In this document: positions 23,659 through 31,250 of the stretch, in pieces | How positions within the stretch are numbered: the stretch's first letter is position 1 | Layout: every line of letters begins with the position of its first letter | Assembly: GCA_949751835.1 (NCBI GenBank) | Contig: CATKHK010000048.1 | Span: 186,001 to 250,000 of the forward strand | From: Blepharisma japonicum | Lineage: Eukaryota; Ciliophora; Heterotrichea; Heterotrichida; Blepharismidae | Reading direction: 5' to 3' | DNA length: 64,000 nt | Made by a program: the position numbers and the translations under genes | The notes under the pieces: generated by a model | What the model saw: only the letters and a program-made list of their open reading frames with translations | The model's database searches: none | Told to the model about the DNA's origin: nothing

Positions 23659-25823
23659 TTAAAAATTAGAAAGCTCCATCAGTTTCTGATTATTTTTAGC
23701 AAGTCATCGCTTTGATTTCATAGCCACAAGATCCCACAAGCACTTATAATCTTTACATTTTTCATAAAGCAATCCAACCATAAGGGAAGTAACTGATTTC
23801 TCATTTAGATTTGAGATATCTAAATTATGACCAAGCAAGCTATTTGCGATACCCGATAAGCTAGGAGAAAATTCCCAGTACCCTTCGGTATTTTGTAGAT
23901 GCATTATTTTTTCAACTTCGCATCCAATATCAATTGACTTTACGTCATTTGTTTCCAAGGACACTTCTGGAAAGCTGTTAATTTCTTGATTACTTATTTC
24001 TATATTCTCAATCTCAGCTTCATAGATTTTTGCTTTTTTTATAGGGGAAACAACTTTTGATTTTTTAGTTCTTCCTCTTTTGGTTTGCAAAGATAAACCT
24101 ACTCTGTTTGAGGTGCTTCTAGTACTAGGAGCATTTTTTGGAGGGATTACTATTGCAGATACAGCTTTTATGGGGGGCTCAATATTTTTAGAATCTCACT
24201 CTCCAAGTTGATTTTTTTCGTAATTTTCGAGGTTAAATGATGTATAATCTCCTTCAATTAGATACTCTTTAGATTTGGCAATTGATAATTGTCTAGTGCA
24301 TTGATGTAAGCAAGTTTTAGCTTCCAAAGCGAGAATAGAAGATGAATTTATTATTTGGCCTTCACTTATCTCTAGACTTATTTCTTTGTTTATTCCAAAT
24401 GCCTTGCATTTATATTGCAGTCCTATGCTTTTAGGAAGTTTTCCTTTTTTAAAAACACCTGAAATTTCAATTTCTTCATCAATAAACTTACTAAATATAT
24501 CTCTCGGCCAAACAATATCAAATAAACGATAATCTGGCACATGAATATTAGTAAAAGCAGGAACCAAAGCTTGCTTCAGCGAACTTAAAACCGCTGGCTT
24601 TATCTGATCTTCACTATTAATAAACTGAGAAGTTCCTTTACCATGTTTAGCAAGATCATCTAAAAAAATTTCATTTGTGTTAATGCCAACTGTGCTGATT
24701 CTTATTTCATTTATATACTCTTGAACCAAACTGCTTATCTCTTGTCTGTTTCCCCAAAATCTTCCATTAGTAATAAAAAAGATTTTTAATGGATATCCAG
24801 AAATTCTACGTTGTTTTAAAACATATTTTAAGGGATCAAGAACATTAGGAGGCCATCCTAAATTAATTTCGCACTGAAGAACAGCACGGCATGCTTCGTC
24901 AGCTGAAGATTTATCATATTTCTTACTGGTTTTAAATATTCATTTAAGCGCTCACCAAATCTTATGATGTTAAAATAGCAGTCTTCAGGAAGGGAGCGAA
25001 TAAATAATGCAGCGGCTTCTGTAATTGTTTTGACTCAATCATCCATTGAATGGCACCTGTCGAGAAAAATAATATATTCTCCAGCTTGCATTTCTTGACT
25101 GATTTCCAAAAGTGTTGGATCTGCAGGGCATGATAAATGAAAAGCATATCTATTGATTCTTAAGTCTTTTTGGACGATAAGAAAAGGAATTTGAGGAGAT
25201 TTAAAATAATAAACAAGCTCAATATCATTATTAACATCAAAATTTTGGAAGATTGCAACGTTATGTGCTTGATCAAGCGTTATTAAATTACCGTTTTCAA
25301 GAATAAAACTATTTTCCTCATTCAAATTGGTTTGAAATATATGGAATTCTGCTGAATGGGGAGCTTCTTTAAGTTTTAATGGAAAAAGAGCTTTTGGGAT
25401 TTTTAGTTTTCAATAATCTTCTGAAAGTGTTTGTTCTGCTTTACAGACATATGTTGCTTCAATTATAATTTCAGTGTTTTCGTTAATATTTGTGATATTA
25501 TAAGTCGAAATATTAGTGTCTTGCAATATTTTAAGAATATATGGTTTCTCTCCTGCATTTACTGCATCTTCATAAGATTTTATAGGTATTTGCAGCTCTC
25601 GAAGTCTAATAGTTGATAATTTATTATTTTTGGTAATTGAGAGTTTTGATAATTGCATATCAGAAATGATTGGGAAAACATACTTCGCATTGATTTTATT
25701 TGTAATGTTACTGTGATGTATCTGCTTGAAAGTAAATTCAGTATAATTATAATGGATTTTACCATAAATACGAAAATCTATAAGTCATAAATGCCCATTG
25801 CATGGACCAACGAGAGAGGACAT
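23659..25823 (-). pseudogene. VIT-vWA paralogue A, frameshifted
   Basis: This is the downstream copy of a three-gene tandem. It keeps the VIT domain (MSSLVGPCNGHLWLIDF..., ATYVCKAEQTLSEDYWK), a vWA domain and the C-terminal domain (CEVEKIMHLQNTEGYWEF ... MKSKRWLAKNNQKL), with four or more TGA codons read as Trp. The reading frame shifts by one base inside the vWA domain near 24930-24965, just before KYDKSSADEACRAVL; no 15-17-nt GT-AG intron explains the shift. The metal site is also degraded: DRCHS instead of DxSxS, and the conserved Thr and second Asp are gone. The region between vWA and C-domain has a short basic linker (LQTKRGRTKKSKVV) but no histone fold. It is either a recent pseudogene or a one-base sequence error in a diverged paralogue. 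Confidence 0.75.
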
Positions 25824-26054
25824 TTTTATTATTTATGTAATAATTTATTTTCATAAAAAATTTATAGCAATTGAAACAGTTCGTAGGAAAGGAAACATCA
25901 ATTACTTGAGATGTAAGGTAAGCATGAGATGGCTGGAGAAAAAAGGGTAAATAGATAAAATCATAGATATTATAGAATGATTAAAATATCTGGGCAAGTT
26001 TTAAACTTATTTTTATTATTAATTTATGGTCTATAGTCTTTTTGAAGATGTTTA
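25824..26054. other. Spacer between paralogues A and B
   Basis: This is 231 bp of AT-rich sequence separating the start of copy A from the stop of copy B. No gene or repeat is recognised; it probably carries the promoter of copy A. Confidence 0.4.
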
Positions 26055-28673
26055 TTAAAAATCTGAAAGCTTAAGTAATTTTTGCTTGTTTTTTGCAAGC
26101 CATCTTTTAGCTTTCATTACTACAAGATCCCACAAGCACTTATAGTCTTTACATTTTTCTTCAAGCAACGCAACAACAAAAGCTGTAGTTGATTTTTCAT
26201 TCAATATAAAAATATCGATATAATAATCAAGCAAATTATTCGCAATATCTGATAAGTTCGCAGAAGTTTCCCAATACCCATCAGTATTTTGTAGATGCAT
26301 TATTTTTTCAACTTCATATCCAACATCAATGCATTTTACCTCATTTTTTTTCTGGGCTGGTTTAGGCGAATTAGAAGCTTCTTTTTTCTTCTTTTCAATA
26401 GGTTTGGCTTCTGCTTTTTCTATTTTCGCCTTTTTTGGAGGAGGGATTACTTTTGCTTGTTTACCTCTTGTTCTTTTAGTTTGTAAGACGACTTCTGCTG
26501 ATTTAGATGTGCTTCGAGTTCTAGGAGTAGTTGCGGCTGGTGTTGAAACTTTAGTAGATGAGCTTTTAGGAGTTGCAGCTCTTCTAGGGGTAGATTTTTT
26601 AGCAGCTTTTTTAGCTTGAGGCTTAATTTGAGCAGGAGTTTTCCCTGATCTGGTTTTTCCTTGTTTAGGGCTTGCTGGTTGGTTTTGCCCTGCTTGCTGA
26701 ACATCAATAACTGCTTCTTGTATATCCACAGGTCTAACAGTCATTCTTTTATGATTTGCAGAAGCATTAACTGAAGCTTTGAACACATCAACAATATATG
26801 CTTCAGCTGCTTCATGAAAAGCCTGAAAAGCTTCTTTTTGGAATCTCATGTCCGGAATGGTATCATTGCTTATTGTCCGAACAATATTTTTGAATTTTGT
26901 TTTGGGGATTAATAAATCTGTTGAACTTTGATATTTTTTAATTTCTTGCTCTGCACGTTTTCCAGGTCTAAATCTATGCGGCTTTTTAACACCAATAGTA
27001 GGATTTATAGATCTTGCATTTACTGCTTTTTTCTTTGGAGCAAATTTAGGCTGCACTGTTTGTGGCAAGTTCGTTTTTTCATATTTTTCAGCTGCAAATG
27101 AGGTATATTCCCCTTCAACTTTATACTCTTTGGATTTTTTAATTGATAATGCTTTATCACATCGCTTTAAGTACTCTTTGGCTTCTAATACAAGAATTGC
27201 GCTAGAAGTCACTATTTGTTCTTCATTTATGGGTAATTCTATTTCTCTCATTGATCCCAGTTTTTCACTTTGAAATTGCAGTGCAATTTTTTTGGGGAGT
27301 TTTCCTTTCTTAAAAACTCCTGAAATTTCAATTTTTTCATTAGAAAAAACACTGAATGGATCTCTTGGCCATACAAAGTCAAACGGTTTATAGTCTGCCA
27401 GCTGAATATTTGTAAGTGCAGGAACTAAAGCTTGCTTCAGTGAGCTTAAAATGGCTGGTTTTATTTGATTAATGCTATTTATTTGCTGAGAAGTGCCATT
27501 GCCCATTTGTGCAAGATCATCAATAAATTTCTCATTTGTGTTTATGCCAATGGCACTTATTTTGACATCTTTATGTTTTTCTATCAGTGTTTTGAATACA
27601 TTTTTATCACCCCATATATTTCCATCAGTTACCACAAAGATGCTTAAAGGATACCCAGGGATTCTGTTGCTTTCTAAAACATATTTTAAAGGCTCCAGAA
27701 GGTCAGTTCCTCCCATATCGCTCATATACTCAAGAACGACACGATGTGCTTCGTCAGCTGAACATTTATCATATTTTTTACTCTTTTTAAACATTGACTG
27801 GTATCTACTTCCGAAGCTTACGATGTTGAAATAGCAGTTCTCTGGAAGTGAACGAATAAATAGTGCGACAGCTTCTGTTGCTAATTTTATTCTGCTGCGC
27901 ATTGATCCACTTCTGTCTAATAATATAACAAATTCTCCAATTTGTGCTCCTCCACTTGAATCCAAAAGGTCTTCGTCTGGCTTGTAGGATAAATAAAAAG
28001 CATGCCTATCTGTACCTTGATCGCATTGAACTATAATAAATGGTTCATTAGGAATTTCTTGATAGTAAGTTACTTCAAGATCGATATCAGGGCTAAAATC
28101 CTTAAAATTTACCTGGTTGTGTTTTTTATCAAGAGTTACTGCATTCCCATTTTTAACAATAACTTCGCCTTTTCGTGTTATTGATTCATTAGTGATATTG
28201 GCAAAGCAAGGAGTGTTTTCAAGTTTATTTGGAAAAAGAGTTTTGGGGATTATGAACTTCCAAAAGTTTTCTGGAAGTGCTTGTTCTGATTTGCAGACAT
28301 AAGTAGCTTCAATTTTTATTTCTGAGCTTCCTTCAACTTCTCCAATATCATAAACCATCATGTCAGAATCACGCAACTTTTCGAGCAAAAAATCGCTTTC
28401 ACCTGCATTTTTTGCCTCCTGATAAGATTTTAGAGGCTTATTAGGCTCTTCGATACTAAGCTGGTCGGAAGTATTGTCTCTTATTATTTTGAGTTCAGAT
28501 AGGTGTATGTCGGAAATGATCGGAAAAACATATTTTGCATCGATTGCAGCTTTGGAATTGTTGGAATAACACTGCACTAAAGTAAATTCAGCATAATTGT
28601 AATTAAGCCCTCCACTAATATGAAATTCGATAAGCTCTAGGTGAGCATTGTTGGAACCAACTAAAGAAGACAT
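26055..28673 (-). CDS. VIT-vWA protein with an inserted histone H3 fold (paralogue B)
   Basis: This is an uninterrupted 872-residue protein with four parts: a VIT domain (about 10-135), a vWA domain (246-410) with an intact metal site (DRSGS at 253-257, Thr323, Asp350), a histone H3-like fold (563-655), and a C-terminal domain (784-872; HLQNTDGYWE ... KRWLAKN) resembling the tail of PARP4 and VWA5A. The H3 segment begins GVKKPHRFRPGKRAEQEIKK and continues through RFQKEAFQAFHEAAEAYI and MTVRPVDIQEA, following histone H3 helix by helix. Residues 660-780 form a Lys/Ser/Thr/Pro-rich linker with TPRR, TPKS and SPKP motifs like a histone tail. There is no signal peptide, so it is probably intracellular, possibly nuclear. 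It is the only copy of the three with a complete frame and metal site. Confidence 0.93.
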   Translation of the reverse strand: MSSLVGSNNAHLELIEFHISGGLNYNYAEFTLVQCYSNNSKAAIDAKYVFPIISDIHLSELKIIRDNTSDQLSIEEPNKPLKSYQEAKNAGESDFLLEKLRDSDMMVYDIGEVEGSSEIKIEATYVCKSEQALPENFWKFIIPKTLFPNKLENTPCFANITNESITRKGEVIVKNGNAVTLDKKHNQVNFKDFSPDIDLEVTYYQEIPNEPFIIVQCDQGTDRHAFYLSYKPDEDLLDSSGGAQIGEFVILLDRSGSMRSRIKLATEAVALFIRSLPENCYFNIVSFGSRYQSMFKKSKKYDKCSADEAHRVVLEYMSDMGGTDLLEPLKYVLESNRIPGYPLSIFVVTDGNIWGDKNVFKTLIEKHKDVKISAIGINTNEKFIDDLAQMGNGTSQQINSINQIKPAILSSLKQALVPALTNIQLADYKPFDFVWPRDPFSVFSNEKIEISGVFKKGKLPKKIALQFQSEKLGSMREIELPINEEQIVTSSAILVLEAKEYLKRCDKALSIKKSKEYKVEGEYTSFAAEKYEKTNLPQTVQPKFAPKKKAVNARSINPTIGVKKPHRFRPGKRAEQEIKKYQSSTDLLIPKTKFKNIVRTISNDTIPDMRFQKEAFQAFHEAAEAYIVDVFKASVNASANHKRMTVRPVDIQEAVIDVQQAGQNQPASPKQGKTRSGKTPAQIKPQAKKAAKKSTPRRAATPKSSSTKVSTPAATTPRTRSTSKSAEVVLQTKRTRGKQAKVIPPPKKAKIEKAEAKPIEKKKKEASNSPKPAQKKNEVKCIDVGYEVEKIMHLQNTDGYWETSANLSDIANNLLDYYIDIFILNEKSTTAFVVALLEEKCKDYKCLWDLVVMKAKRWLAKNKQKLLKLSDF
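26709..26987 (-). other. Histone H3-like fold embedded in paralogue B
   Basis: These bases encode residues 563-655. The match to core H3 starts at the GVKKPHR(F/Y)RPG lead-in just before the alphaN helix and runs to MTVRPVDIQEA, where H3 has VTIMPKDIQLA. Loop 1 has the same length as canonical H3 (TIPDMRFQ against FKTDLRFQ), with no CENP-A-type insertion. The Lys pair equivalent to H3 K36/K37 is kept. Upstream residues KKKAVNARSINPTI faintly echo the end of the H3 tail. The two neighbouring paralogues have nothing similar here. Confidence 0.9.
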
Positions 28674-28854
28674 TTATATTATTAGCAAAAATGGATTTAG
28701 TTAAGATATCTATGATTAATTGCATTGTATTTTCTGATTAACTTAAAGCATCTAATCAAATTAGTGCAATAGTTAATTGTGAAAGAGCTAAAAAATTTTA
28801 AAATTATTTATAAAAATTATTAGCTTACAATTGTGGTTATAATAATGCATTAAT

Positions 28855-28905
28855 ATTTGAAAGTTTAATAGGTTTTTGATTGCCTTTTGCAAGCCATCTC
28901 TTAGC
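28855..28905 (-). pseudogene. Relic of the C-terminal domain of paralogue C
   Basis: On the minus strand this stretch reads KAKRWLAKGNQKPIKLSN, nearly the same as the last residues of copies A and B (KRWLAKNKQKLLKLSDF). It lies about 400 bp downstream of the stop of copy C, with no recognisable domain remainder between. This indicates that copy C once had the full C-terminal domain and lost it by decay or partial deletion. Confidence 0.65.
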
Positions 28906-29294
28906 TTTCTAAGTAAAGCAATAATTAAAACTATAATTAATTATCATCTAGTTTTGAGTTCGCAAGATCTCCTTACTAAAAATGAATAAACATGTTCTTT
29001 TAGTTCAATTTTATAACTTAATACGAAGAAAACTCTATCATTATTTCATTAGAATACCATTGAGGTTCCTTTCTAATTTAATAAAATAAAAAGTCTTTAA
29101 AGAAATCAAATTGTGTGAAATTTATAAATGAGAATTGCTAGAAATGTTCTAAACAAAATGAAATAAAGGTGCTGGGATTAGATATAAAGTAAAAGCTTAA
29201 GACATTGGGATTATCTGCAAGTTTTACAGATACTGTGAATTATTTACTCGATTATGACTTAGTTTCCAGCAAATTCATGTTTATAAATTTCAGT
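28906..29294. other. Degenerate spacer between the C-domain relic and copy C
   Basis: This is AT-rich sequence with no open frame. A few words near 28960 vaguely recall the coding sequence of the vWA-family C-terminal domain (GCAAGATCTCC, compare ACAAGATCCCAC), suggesting decayed exon sequence, but the match is too weak to annotate further. Confidence 0.35.
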
Positions 29295-31250
29295 TTACTT
29301 AATCTGAGCTTCATCTGTCTTGGCCTTTTTTCGAGGAGAAGTGGCGTCTAATTTCTTATTTCTTCCTCTTTTTATCTGTAAGACTGCATCTGCAGAACAA
29401 GAAGCACTTTGAGCTTGATTAGGAACTTCAGGTGATACAGCCCCAGATCGTATCTTAGGGGTTGAATTAACGCTTAAAGCAGTTTCTTTACCAGATCGTT
29501 TATTTTTTTGCTTTATTTTTGCTGCAGGCTTTAGTAAATTTCTCTCTGAGCTAGTTATTTCATGCTCCTGAAATACTGAATAACTTTGTTCTGATTGCTC
29601 TTTATCATAAACCTCTTCCCTCAACTCATTATTAGTCGTGAGCTCTTCTGCCAGCTTAACTTTTTTATATCTTTCAATTTTGAATGAGGAGTAATCTCCT
29701 TCAACTTGATATTCTTTGGATTTTCTAATTGATAACTCTTTATCACATTGTTTAATATACCTTTTGGATTCAAGCACAAGAATTGAAGATGTAATTGATA
29801 TTTGACCTTCAGTTATGCTTCAATTTATATGCTTAGGAGGTCCCACTCTATCAGTTTTAAACTGTAAATCTATATTTTTTGGAAGCACTCCTCTCTTGAA
29901 AACACCTGAGATTTCAATTTTTTCTTCCAAAGTAGCATTGAAAGCTTCATTTGGTAAAACAAAATCAAATAGTCTATCGTCTAAAAGTTGAATATCAGTA
30001 AAAGTTGGAGTCAATGATCTTAAAACTGCTTGCCCTATCTCATTTTGGCTATTAATTATTTGAGAGGTTCCTTTTCCTATTCTAGCAAGCTCTTTAATAA
30101 AAGTGAGATCTGCATCTATCCCAATTGTATTGATTTTAACTTCCTTATACTTTTTTATTAATCTAGTAATTTTGCTTTTATTATCTCAAGTATTCCTATT
30201 AGTTATAACAAATATGCTCAGTGGATATCCAGGTATCCTAGAACTTTCTAATATATATTTCAAAGGTCCAAAAATATCACTTTCTATCATATTACTATTT
30301 AATGAGCAAATTGCTTGATGTGCTTCATCTGCTGAACATTGATTATATTTTCGACTTATTTCAAATATTGGCTTTCCAAAGCTAACAACATTAAAATAGT
30401 AATTTTCTGGAAGAGAACGAATAAATAATGCAGCTGCTTCAGTAATCAATGGGATTTTATTACCAATAGAAGCAGCATTTTCATCAAGTAAAAGAACAAA
30501 TTCTCCAGCAAGCCCTTCTTCACTTAAATCCAAAAGATTTTTATCTGGCTTATATGATAAATAAAAAGCATATCTATTAATTCTTGGGTCTTTTTGAACT
30601 GTAAGATAAGTCTCCTGAGGCGTTTCGAAATAGTAAGCAACTTCGAGATCATCATCTGGACTAAAATTCATAAAGCTTGCAACTCCAAAATCTAATTCAA
30701 GTGTTATAAAATTTCCACTTTGAAGCGAAAACTTATTATATTGCCTAAGAGAATAGTCCCAAAATGAATTAATATCTGCTGTATATGGAACTTGTTGATG
30801 TCCAAATGGAAAGAGAGCCTTAGGGATTTTGAATTTCCAATAGGGCTCTAAAGGCATTTTCTCAGTTTTGCAAACAAAAACTGTCTCAACTTGAATTTCT
30901 TCATTTGCAACAATTTTTTCAACATCATATACCATCATGTCATACTCTTGAAGTTTTTCAAGAGTGTAAGAGGTTTCTCCTGCGTTTTTTGCATCTTCAT
31001 ATGATTTCAGAAGATTATAAGCTTCTTCAATTTTAAGGCTAGAATTAGATCTAGTTCGGAAAACTGAGAGATTTATGAGATTGATGCTGGGAATGACTGG
31101 AGATATATATTTTGCATAAATTTCTACATTGGAGCAATTTAAGTAGAACTGATGGAAAGTGAATTCAGCTGAATTATTATGAATCGTCCCATCAATATGG
31201 AATTTTGTAAGTTTAAGAGGCTCATTGTTGGAGCCAAATAAAATTGACAT
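29295..31250 (-). CDS. VIT-vWA paralogue C, truncated, metal site lost
   Basis: This is a 651-residue frame using two TGA codons as Trp (30186 region, RNTWDNKSK; 29820 region, HINWSITEG). It has the VIT domain and a vWA domain whose metal-binding motif is gone: DENAA replaces DxSxS, and TNRNT replaces TDG. It lacks both the H3 fold and the C-terminal domain, ending after a basic linker (RGRNKKLDATSPRKKAKTDE). The start at 31250 gives MSILFGSNN, aligned with MSSLVGSNN of copy B; an upstream in-frame ATG (31268) is less likely. It could still make protein, but probably cannot bind metal ligand. It is intermediate between a functional paralogue and a pseudogene. Confidence 0.75.

What the first reader, a model, noticed from the sequence alone, without database searches (positions are those of the whole stretch)
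26055..28673. Histone H3 fold inserted in a VIT-vWA protein
The frame is intact over 872 codons and reads VIT, vWA, H3-like fold, basic linker, PARP4/VWA5A-like C-domain. The H3 segment matches core H3 from the GVKKPHR(F/Y)RPG lead-in through the histone-fold helices to VRPVDIQEA, with unchanged loop-1 length, so it is not a chance basic stretch. I know of no described family that combines these domains. It might place a metal-dependent adhesion-type domain on chromatin, or act as an H3 mimic competing for chaperones or histone-modifying enzymes.
Basis: partly seen in the sequence, partly recalled or inferred. Interest (0 to 1): 0.9.

Follow-up and report, generated by a model that had tools for sequence, protein, structure and literature searches.

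The report
Histone H3 inside a VIT-vWA protein
A ciliate gene carries a genuine but altered histone H3 domain in the middle of a protein related to the vault protein PARP4, a combination not found in the searches made here; if expressed, it could tie that protein family to chromatin.

Summary
The minus-strand frame 28673..26055 is open over 872 codons and encodes VIT, vWA with a complete MIDAS motif, a true histone H3 domain (Pfam Histone E 1.1e-23; the 60 PDB rows shown of 173 are H3, best E 1e-24), a lysine-rich linker and a small C-domain. The VIT-vWA part is closest to human PARP4 in PDB (E 1.9e-15). The genome reads TGA as Trp and fits Blepharisma. Two tandem sister copies lack H3, keep 2 of 5 MIDAS residues each and are damaged, so H3 was most simply gained by the middle copy. 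The H3 alignment is gapless from G34 to A127. Of 20 buried positions none has a negative-scoring change, but the surface joining two H3s in a nucleosome is largely altered (2 of 8 positions kept; L126 is E) (P 0.043 or 0.009 by pool). I therefore favour an H4-pairing chromatin tether over a nucleosomal H3 variant. The C-domain's link to PARP4's MVP-interacting domain is only suggestive (for; negative). Expression, orthologues and partners are untested. Novelty: a new domain architecture within a known family.

The parts
26055..28673 (-). Intact 872-codon gene (copy B): VIT - vWA - ITIH-like region - histone H3 - basic linker - C-domain
   Evidence: open frame; Pfam
28299..28628 (-). VIT domain, residues 16-125
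   Evidence: Pfam PF08487 E 8.4e-13; PARP4 621-755
27486..27935 (-). vWA domain, residues 247-396, with D253/S255/S257, T323, D350 of the MIDAS
   Evidence: Pfam PF13768 E 1e-23; PARP4 852-1029; positions
27054..27485 (-). Region after the vWA, residues 397-540, shared with copies A and C
   Evidence: alignment A2; TIGR03788 best stretch 195-520
26709..27035 (-). Histone H3 domain, residues 547-655; gapless H3 alignment G34-A127 = residues 561-654
   Evidence: Pfam PF00125 E 1.1e-23; PDB H3 chains E 1e-24; class test
26343..26690 (-). Lysine/arginine-rich linker, about residues 662-777
   Evidence: 26.5% K+R over residues 659-790
26418..26486 (-). Nuclear-localisation-like basic block LQTKRTRGKQAKVIPPPKKAKIE (residues 730-752), recognisable in all three copies
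   Evidence: copy comparison; NLS reading by inspection
26058..26342 (-). C-domain, about residues 778-872
   Evidence: 67% identical to copy A over the 103 columns of A1; AF2 best of five models all helical, mean pLDDT 72, the other four 42-50; weak similarity to the start of the PARP4 MVP-interacting domain
23659..25823 (-). Tandem copy A: VIT-vWA-basic block-C-domain, no H3, one frameshift around 24930-24970, 2 of 5 MIDAS residues
29295..31250 (-). Tandem copy C: VIT-vWA-basic block, no H3, stops before the C-domain, 2 of 5 MIDAS residues
28852..28908 (-). Remnant of the end of the C-domain belonging to copy C
   Evidence: tblastn with code 4, 68% over 19 aa, E 8.5e-6 against the 627-base stretch searched

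Best explanation
Copy B is a real gene of a Blepharisma-like ciliate, a PARP4/VWA5A-type VIT-vWA protein whose linker gained a histone H3 domain. Shown by sequence: H3 identity, domain order, complete MIDAS motif, a basic block shared by all copies, tandem sisters without H3. Inferred: the protein enters the nucleus by its basic block; the H3 domain folds by pairing with H4 (buried core kept), while the H3-H3' surface is altered so that it does not enter a normal (H3-H4)2 tetramer; the lysine-rich linker adds DNA affinity. The vWA and C-domain are thereby held on or near chromatin, or H3-H4 is held by the VIT-vWA body, so that a metal-dependent vWA ligand and a C-domain partner meet chromatin.
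For: Pfam and PDB matches; ITIH1 is the best fold match of the low-confidence model. Buried H3 positions: 10 of 20 identical, 0 of 20 with a negative BLOSUM62 score; H3-H3' interface positions: 2 of 8 identical; of the six changes C110A, H113N, A114H, L126E, I130D and R131V the last four score negative; permutation P 0.043 against positions 44-131 and 0.009 within buried plus interface (position lists from PMC3017104, passages). Human CENP-A keeps 7 of 8 (sequence recalled). H3.3 L126A-I130A still binds H4 and DAXX but does not enter nucleosomes (PMC5662737, passages). B keeps 5 of 5 MIDAS residues, A and C 2 of 5 each. pN/pS 0.27-0.65 between copies.
Against: No RNA, protein, localisation or orthologue evidence. 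The interface argument is modest: P 0.043 on the wider pool; positions 130-131 lie beyond the end of the phmmer alignment, and without them 4 of 6 positions differ but only 2 of 6 score negative. 'Buried better than random' reaches only P 0.074. Whether Blepharisma's own H3 shares these changes is unknown. Purifying selection on the H3 part cannot be tested, since no second copy carries it. The MVP-type role of the C-domain rests on one chosen comparison with four negative searches. The nuclear role rests on a basic block read by eye.
Confidence: 0.45

Rival explanations
1. A true nucleosomal H3 variant with a large attached body, the H3 counterpart of macroH2A: it enters nucleosomes and displays the VIT-vWA body on the surface.
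For: Gapless H3 fold; 8 of 15 DNA-contact positions identical (R40, R42, K64, R72, R83, K115, R116, T118), list recalled; D123 and A127 of the H3-H3' surface kept.
Against: H113N and L126E on the H3-H3' surface, positions where alanine is lethal in yeast (PMC3017104, passages); R49, R63 and R69 changed; H3 is internal, with a body of about 545 residues on its N side.
Confidence: 0.15
2. A soluble H3 mimic: binds free H4 or H3-H4 chaperones, or offers H3-like lysines to modifying enzymes, and so titrates histone supply or signalling.
For: An H3.3 with L126A-I130A is still held with DAXX and H4 in pre-deposition complexes (PMC5662737, passages); K36, K37 and the GVKKPHRF lead-in are kept.
Against: H3 tail residues before about 15 do not align and K79 is I; the Asf1 surface overlaps the altered interface.
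Confidence: 0.15
3. An evolutionary accident: H3 landed in the linker of one copy of a decaying tandem cluster and has no role.
For: Both sister copies are damaged; only one H3-bearing copy was found; the synonymous codon score of the H3 part is small and is exceeded by one antisense frame.
Against: 46 of 84 core positions differ from canonical H3, yet there is no stop, no gap and no negative-scoring change at 20 buried positions; the other domains of B are intact, including the MIDAS.
Confidence: 0.2
4. Assembly chimera or wrong gene model: the H3 part belongs to another transcript.
For: No read data were available here.
Against: One frame without stop over 872 codons, with coding-type codon usage in every part; introns in B. 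stoltei are predominantly 15-16 nt (PMC9942806, passages), so splicing out about 330 nt would be abnormal; on both sides of H3 the frame continues into stretches shared with A and C.
Confidence: 0.05

Closest known systems
PARP4 (vault PARP), ITIH-like VIT-vWA region plus C-terminal MVP-interacting domain
   Same: VIT and vWA in the same order, E 1.9e-15; later a C-terminal domain with a similar LQxxDGxW start
   Different: No BRCT, WGR or ADP-ribosyltransferase match in B; H3 and a basic linker stand between vWA and C-domain
VWA5A
   Same: A VIT-vWA protein without a PARP part (recalled); the only other human protein reported with a domain like PARP4's MVP-interacting one (PMC10450202, passages)
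   Different: No histone fold known in it (recalled); no VWA5A sequence was compared here
ITIH1 and bacterial VIT-vWA proteins (TIGR03788 type)
   Same: Best fold match of the low-confidence model (ITIH1 6fpy, E 2.3e-19); TIGR03788 E 1.2e-31, 109.9 bits against a cut-off of 551.65
   Different: Secreted or cell-surface proteins (recalled); no histone
macroH2A
   Same: A histone fold joined by a lysine-rich linker to a large globular domain (recalled; only a search listing seen)
   Different: H2A instead of H3, histone at the N-terminus, macro domain instead of VIT-vWA; forms nucleosomes (recalled)
Fused histones of giant viruses and archaea
   Same: A histone fold fused to other domains; Hodarchaeales have histone-Roadblock fusions (PMC10919886, passages)
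   Different: Those are histone-histone fusions or archaeal histones; here a eukaryotic H3 sits in a VIT-vWA protein

Membership tests
Histone H3 fold | Significant match to the core histone profile, with H3 the best class | tested here: met
   PF00125 E 1.1e-23; the 60 rows shown of 173 in PDB are H3; class z 44.3 against 2.3-3.2
Histone H3 fold | Gapless alpha1-L1-alpha2-L2-alpha3 with conserved buried core | tested here: met
   no gap G34-A127 in the three alignments printed; 10 of 20 buried positions identical, 0 of 20 negative
Nucleosomal H3 (tetramer-forming) | H3-H3' four-helix interface kept | tested here: not met
   2 of 8 listed positions identical, 4 of 8 negative; without positions 130-131, 2 of 6 identical and 2 of 6 negative; P 0.043 or 0.009 by pool
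Nucleosomal H3 (tetramer-forming) | Incorporation into nucleosomes | not testable with these tools
   needs reconstitution
CenH3 | Longer loop 1 and divergent N-tail (recalled features) | tested here: not met
   loop 1 of canonical length and GVKKPHRFRPG kept
VIT-vWA (ITIH-like) family | VIT followed by vWA | tested here: met
   PF08487 E 8.4e-13, PF13768 E 1e-23
VIT-vWA (ITIH-like) family | MIDAS residues DxSxS, T, D (recalled motif) | tested here: met
   D253 S255 S257 T323 D350; 2 of 5 in A and in C
PARP4 | BRCT, WGR and ART domains | tested here: not met
   none among the 6 Pfam families with E up to 1
PARP4 MVP-interacting domain | Homologous C-terminal helical domain | tested here: inconclusive
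   targeted comparison with PARP4 1579-1724: shuffles reach the score in 6 of 2000 (B, 19 aligned residues) and 0 of 2000 (A), hhalign probability 75%; Pfam, PDB profile, Foldseek and phmmer negative

The most novel reading that the evidence does not exclude
A vault-to-chromatin adaptor: the C-domain docks on the major vault protein as PARP4's does, while the H3 domain, paired with H4, and the basic linker dock on chromatin or carry H3-H4 as vault cargo, giving the vault family a direct histone link.
Probability: 0.1. Interest if true: 0.85.

Novelty: new variant of a known kind. Interest (0 to 1): 0.6.

Why it matters
[quoted passage not shown] Here an H3 fold sits inside a VIT-vWA protein, with its core kept and its tetramer surface altered. 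It offers a natural test of what an H3 can do without nucleosome assembly and, if the C-domain is vault-type, a possible link between chromatin and vaults, whose function is still unknown (PMC13174449, passages).

Tried and rejected
No own genome was held, so Blepharisma's own H3 and other VIT-vWA genes could not be compared. The B H3 segment, an H3.1 core and the C-domain alignment found no confirmed relatives in viral contigs (3 of 8 scans used), and the VIT-vWA part found none in genome contigs (1 of 2 scans used); phages gave no match to the H3 segment; plasmids gave 11 records for the whole protein, all bacterial and all under 60% identity, 10 matching only from residue 247 to 423-427 (the vWA) and one (Pontibacter) 74-454. 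No orthologue with H3 was found, but none of these is a collection of eukaryote genomes.

H3 remnants in the linkers of A and C: none detected (A 966 of 1000 and C 567 of 1000 shuffles reach the score). The weak tblastn hit of C to B 650-757 (low-complexity filter off) I take for a basic-region match. Copy A's break as a 15/16-nt intron: the only GT..AG candidate in the 161 bases scanned did not join the frames; treated as a frameshift, though a sequencing error is not excluded. Whole-protein AF2 model: mean pLDDT 45, about 25-35 over residues 541-660, so the H3 part is not usable and the model served only for the VIT-vWA fold search; PARP4 is not among the 50 rows shown there. The C-domain fold search gave 31 matches up to E 10, none up to 0.001. 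Archaeal histone (E 0.0012) is far weaker than H3. The start of the PDB histone match (residues 545-553, APKKKAVNA) lies opposite PPIKAVSA of copy A in the alignment, so this first bit may be native linker rather than H3 tail.

Full report
What is there. The minus strand from 28673 to 26055 reads one frame of 872 codons without TAA, TAG or TGA (0 TGA and 6 TGG codons). Pfam finds VIT (residues 16-125, E 8.4e-13), vWA (247-396, E 1e-23) and core histone (547-655, E 1.1e-23, 84.2 bits against a cut-off of 26.4). Against PDB the whole protein matches H3 best (E 1e-24); the 60 rows shown of 173 are all H3, and the three alignments printed are gapless from GVKKPHRF to DIQEA. In a class test the segment scores 230 with H3 and 35-38 with H4, H2A and H2B (reference cores recalled). 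Identity to the canonical H3 core is 38 of 84 over positions 44-127 (reference recalled). Overall codon usage is best in the coding frame for all four parts tested; on synonymous choice alone the H3 part scores 0.029 per codon, less than one antisense frame (0.056), so that measure is not decisive for H3.

Which organism. All 7 in-frame stops inside the two neighbouring copies, as I delimited them, are TGA, and 3 of the 7 stand opposite a Trp of copy B. The window is 33.5% GC. 15/16-nt candidate introns that restore frames turned up in 3 of 6 stretches scanned, four candidates in all, without a chance control. This fits Blepharisma stoltei, whose somatic genome is 66% AT, reads UGA as tryptophan and has predominantly 15 and 16 bp introns (PMC9942806, passages). 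The species is an inference. Such tiny introns make it unlikely that the roughly 330-nt H3 part is spliced out.

The family. Residues 1-545 match human PARP4 with E 1.9e-15 (VIT 621-755, vWA 852-1029) and ITIH1 at 0.012. A low-confidence AF2 model (mean pLDDT 45; blocks of 43-83 over residues 1-130) finds ITIH1 first by Foldseek (E 2.3e-19). PARP4's corresponding part is called ITIH-like, followed at 1570-1724 by an MVP-interacting helical domain whose only other human likeness is VWA5A (PMC10450202, passages). B ends in a domain modelled as helical (best of five models mean pLDDT 72, the other four 42-50). Pfam, PDB profile, Foldseek and phmmer did not connect it with PARP4. A direct comparison with PARP4 1579-1724 gave shuffles reaching the score in 6 of 2000 (B, 19 residues aligned) and 0 of 2000 (A), a profile score of only 4.6 bits, and an hhalign probability of 75%. 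I count this as suggestive; it was one chosen comparison, prompted by a recalled motif.

The tandem copies. Copy A (25823..23659) and copy C (31250..29295) share VIT, vWA and a basic block (LQxKRxR...KKAK) with B, and A also the C-domain; neither has H3, and no H3 remnant was detected in their linkers. A has one frameshift; C stops before the C-domain, of which a 19-residue remnant lies at 28908..28852. Pairwise pN/pS lies between 0.27 and 0.65 in seven comparisons, lowest in the C-domain, at dS 0.85-1.21, so the copies probably evolved under constraint for much of their history. The MIDAS is complete in B (D253, S255, S257, T323, D350), while A and C keep 2 of 5 each. Gain of H3 by B is the simplest reading; loss from both others is not excluded.

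What the H3 part can do. Using the residue lists of a published H3 stability study (PMC3017104, passages), the buried set is 10 of 20 identical with 0 of 20 negative BLOSUM62 changes, while the H3-H3' interface is 2 of 8 identical with 4 of 8 negative: C110A, H113N, A114H, L126E, I130D, R131V; D123 and A127 kept. Permutation gives P 0.043 for the interface against positions 44-131, 0.009 within buried plus interface, and 0.074 for the buried set being better than random. Positions 130-131 lie past the phmmer alignment end; without them 4 of 6 differ and 2 of 6 are negative. Human CENP-A keeps 7 of 8 (sequence recalled). H3.3 L126A-I130A in mouse cells still binds H4 and DAXX but does not enter chromatin (PMC5662737, passages). 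So the H3 part probably pairs with H4 but poorly, if at all, with a second H3. Of 15 recalled DNA-contact positions 8 are identical and 3 score negative (T45K, R63P, K122V). K79 is isoleucine here.

Mechanism. I favour a nuclear protein in which H3 (with H4) and the lysine-rich linker (26.5% K+R) hold the VIT-vWA body and C-domain at chromatin. Shown: sequence identities and conservation. Inferred: nuclear entry, H4 pairing, failure to tetramerise, ligand binding by the vWA. I give about 0.95 to the domain identities (VIT, vWA, H3) and gene reality, and 0.45 to the mechanism as a whole.

Novelty. Text searches for Blepharisma with histone and von Willebrand (0 papers), histone fusions (20 of 29 listed), VIT domain with histone H3 and vWA domain, heterotrich and H3-variant terms (12 of 481 listed) and histones with non-histone domains listed no paper recognisably about such a protein; these cover open PMC papers only, and I saw listings and, for six papers, passages (PMC9942806, PMC10450202, PMC5662737, PMC13174449, PMC3017104, PMC10919886), none whole. 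The survey of eukaryotic chromatin evolution by Grau-Bove and colleagues (recalled) was not among the listings and was not read; it may list histone fusions. The domains are all known; the architecture is what appears new.

Noticed in passing
23659-25823 and 29295-31250 (-): Two further tandem copies of the VIT-vWA gene without H3, one frameshifted and one truncated, each with 2 of 5 MIDAS residues.
   Followed up: yes
23659-31250: All 7 in-frame stop codons inside the neighbouring copies are TGA, 3 of them opposite Trp of the intact copy, pointing to TGA=Trp in this genome.
   Followed up: yes
26418-26486 (-): A basic block LQTKR..KKAKI is recognisable in all three copies, suggesting that the whole cluster, not only the H3 copy, may be nuclear.
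   Followed up: partly
26227-27393 (+): A 388-aa antisense frame is open over the H3 and linker part when TGA is read as Trp (8 TGA codons); probably a by-product of the coding strand's composition.
   Followed up: no
27054-28673 (-): A Trypanosoma brucei flagellar doublet-microtubule chain (9e5c_4s) is rank 4 of the fold matches of the low-confidence model, so VIT-vWA-like proteins may also sit in axonemes.
   Followed up: no
42697, 42832, 57336, 21655: Candidate 15/16-nt GT..AG introns that restore reading frames in other genes of the window.
   Followed up: partly
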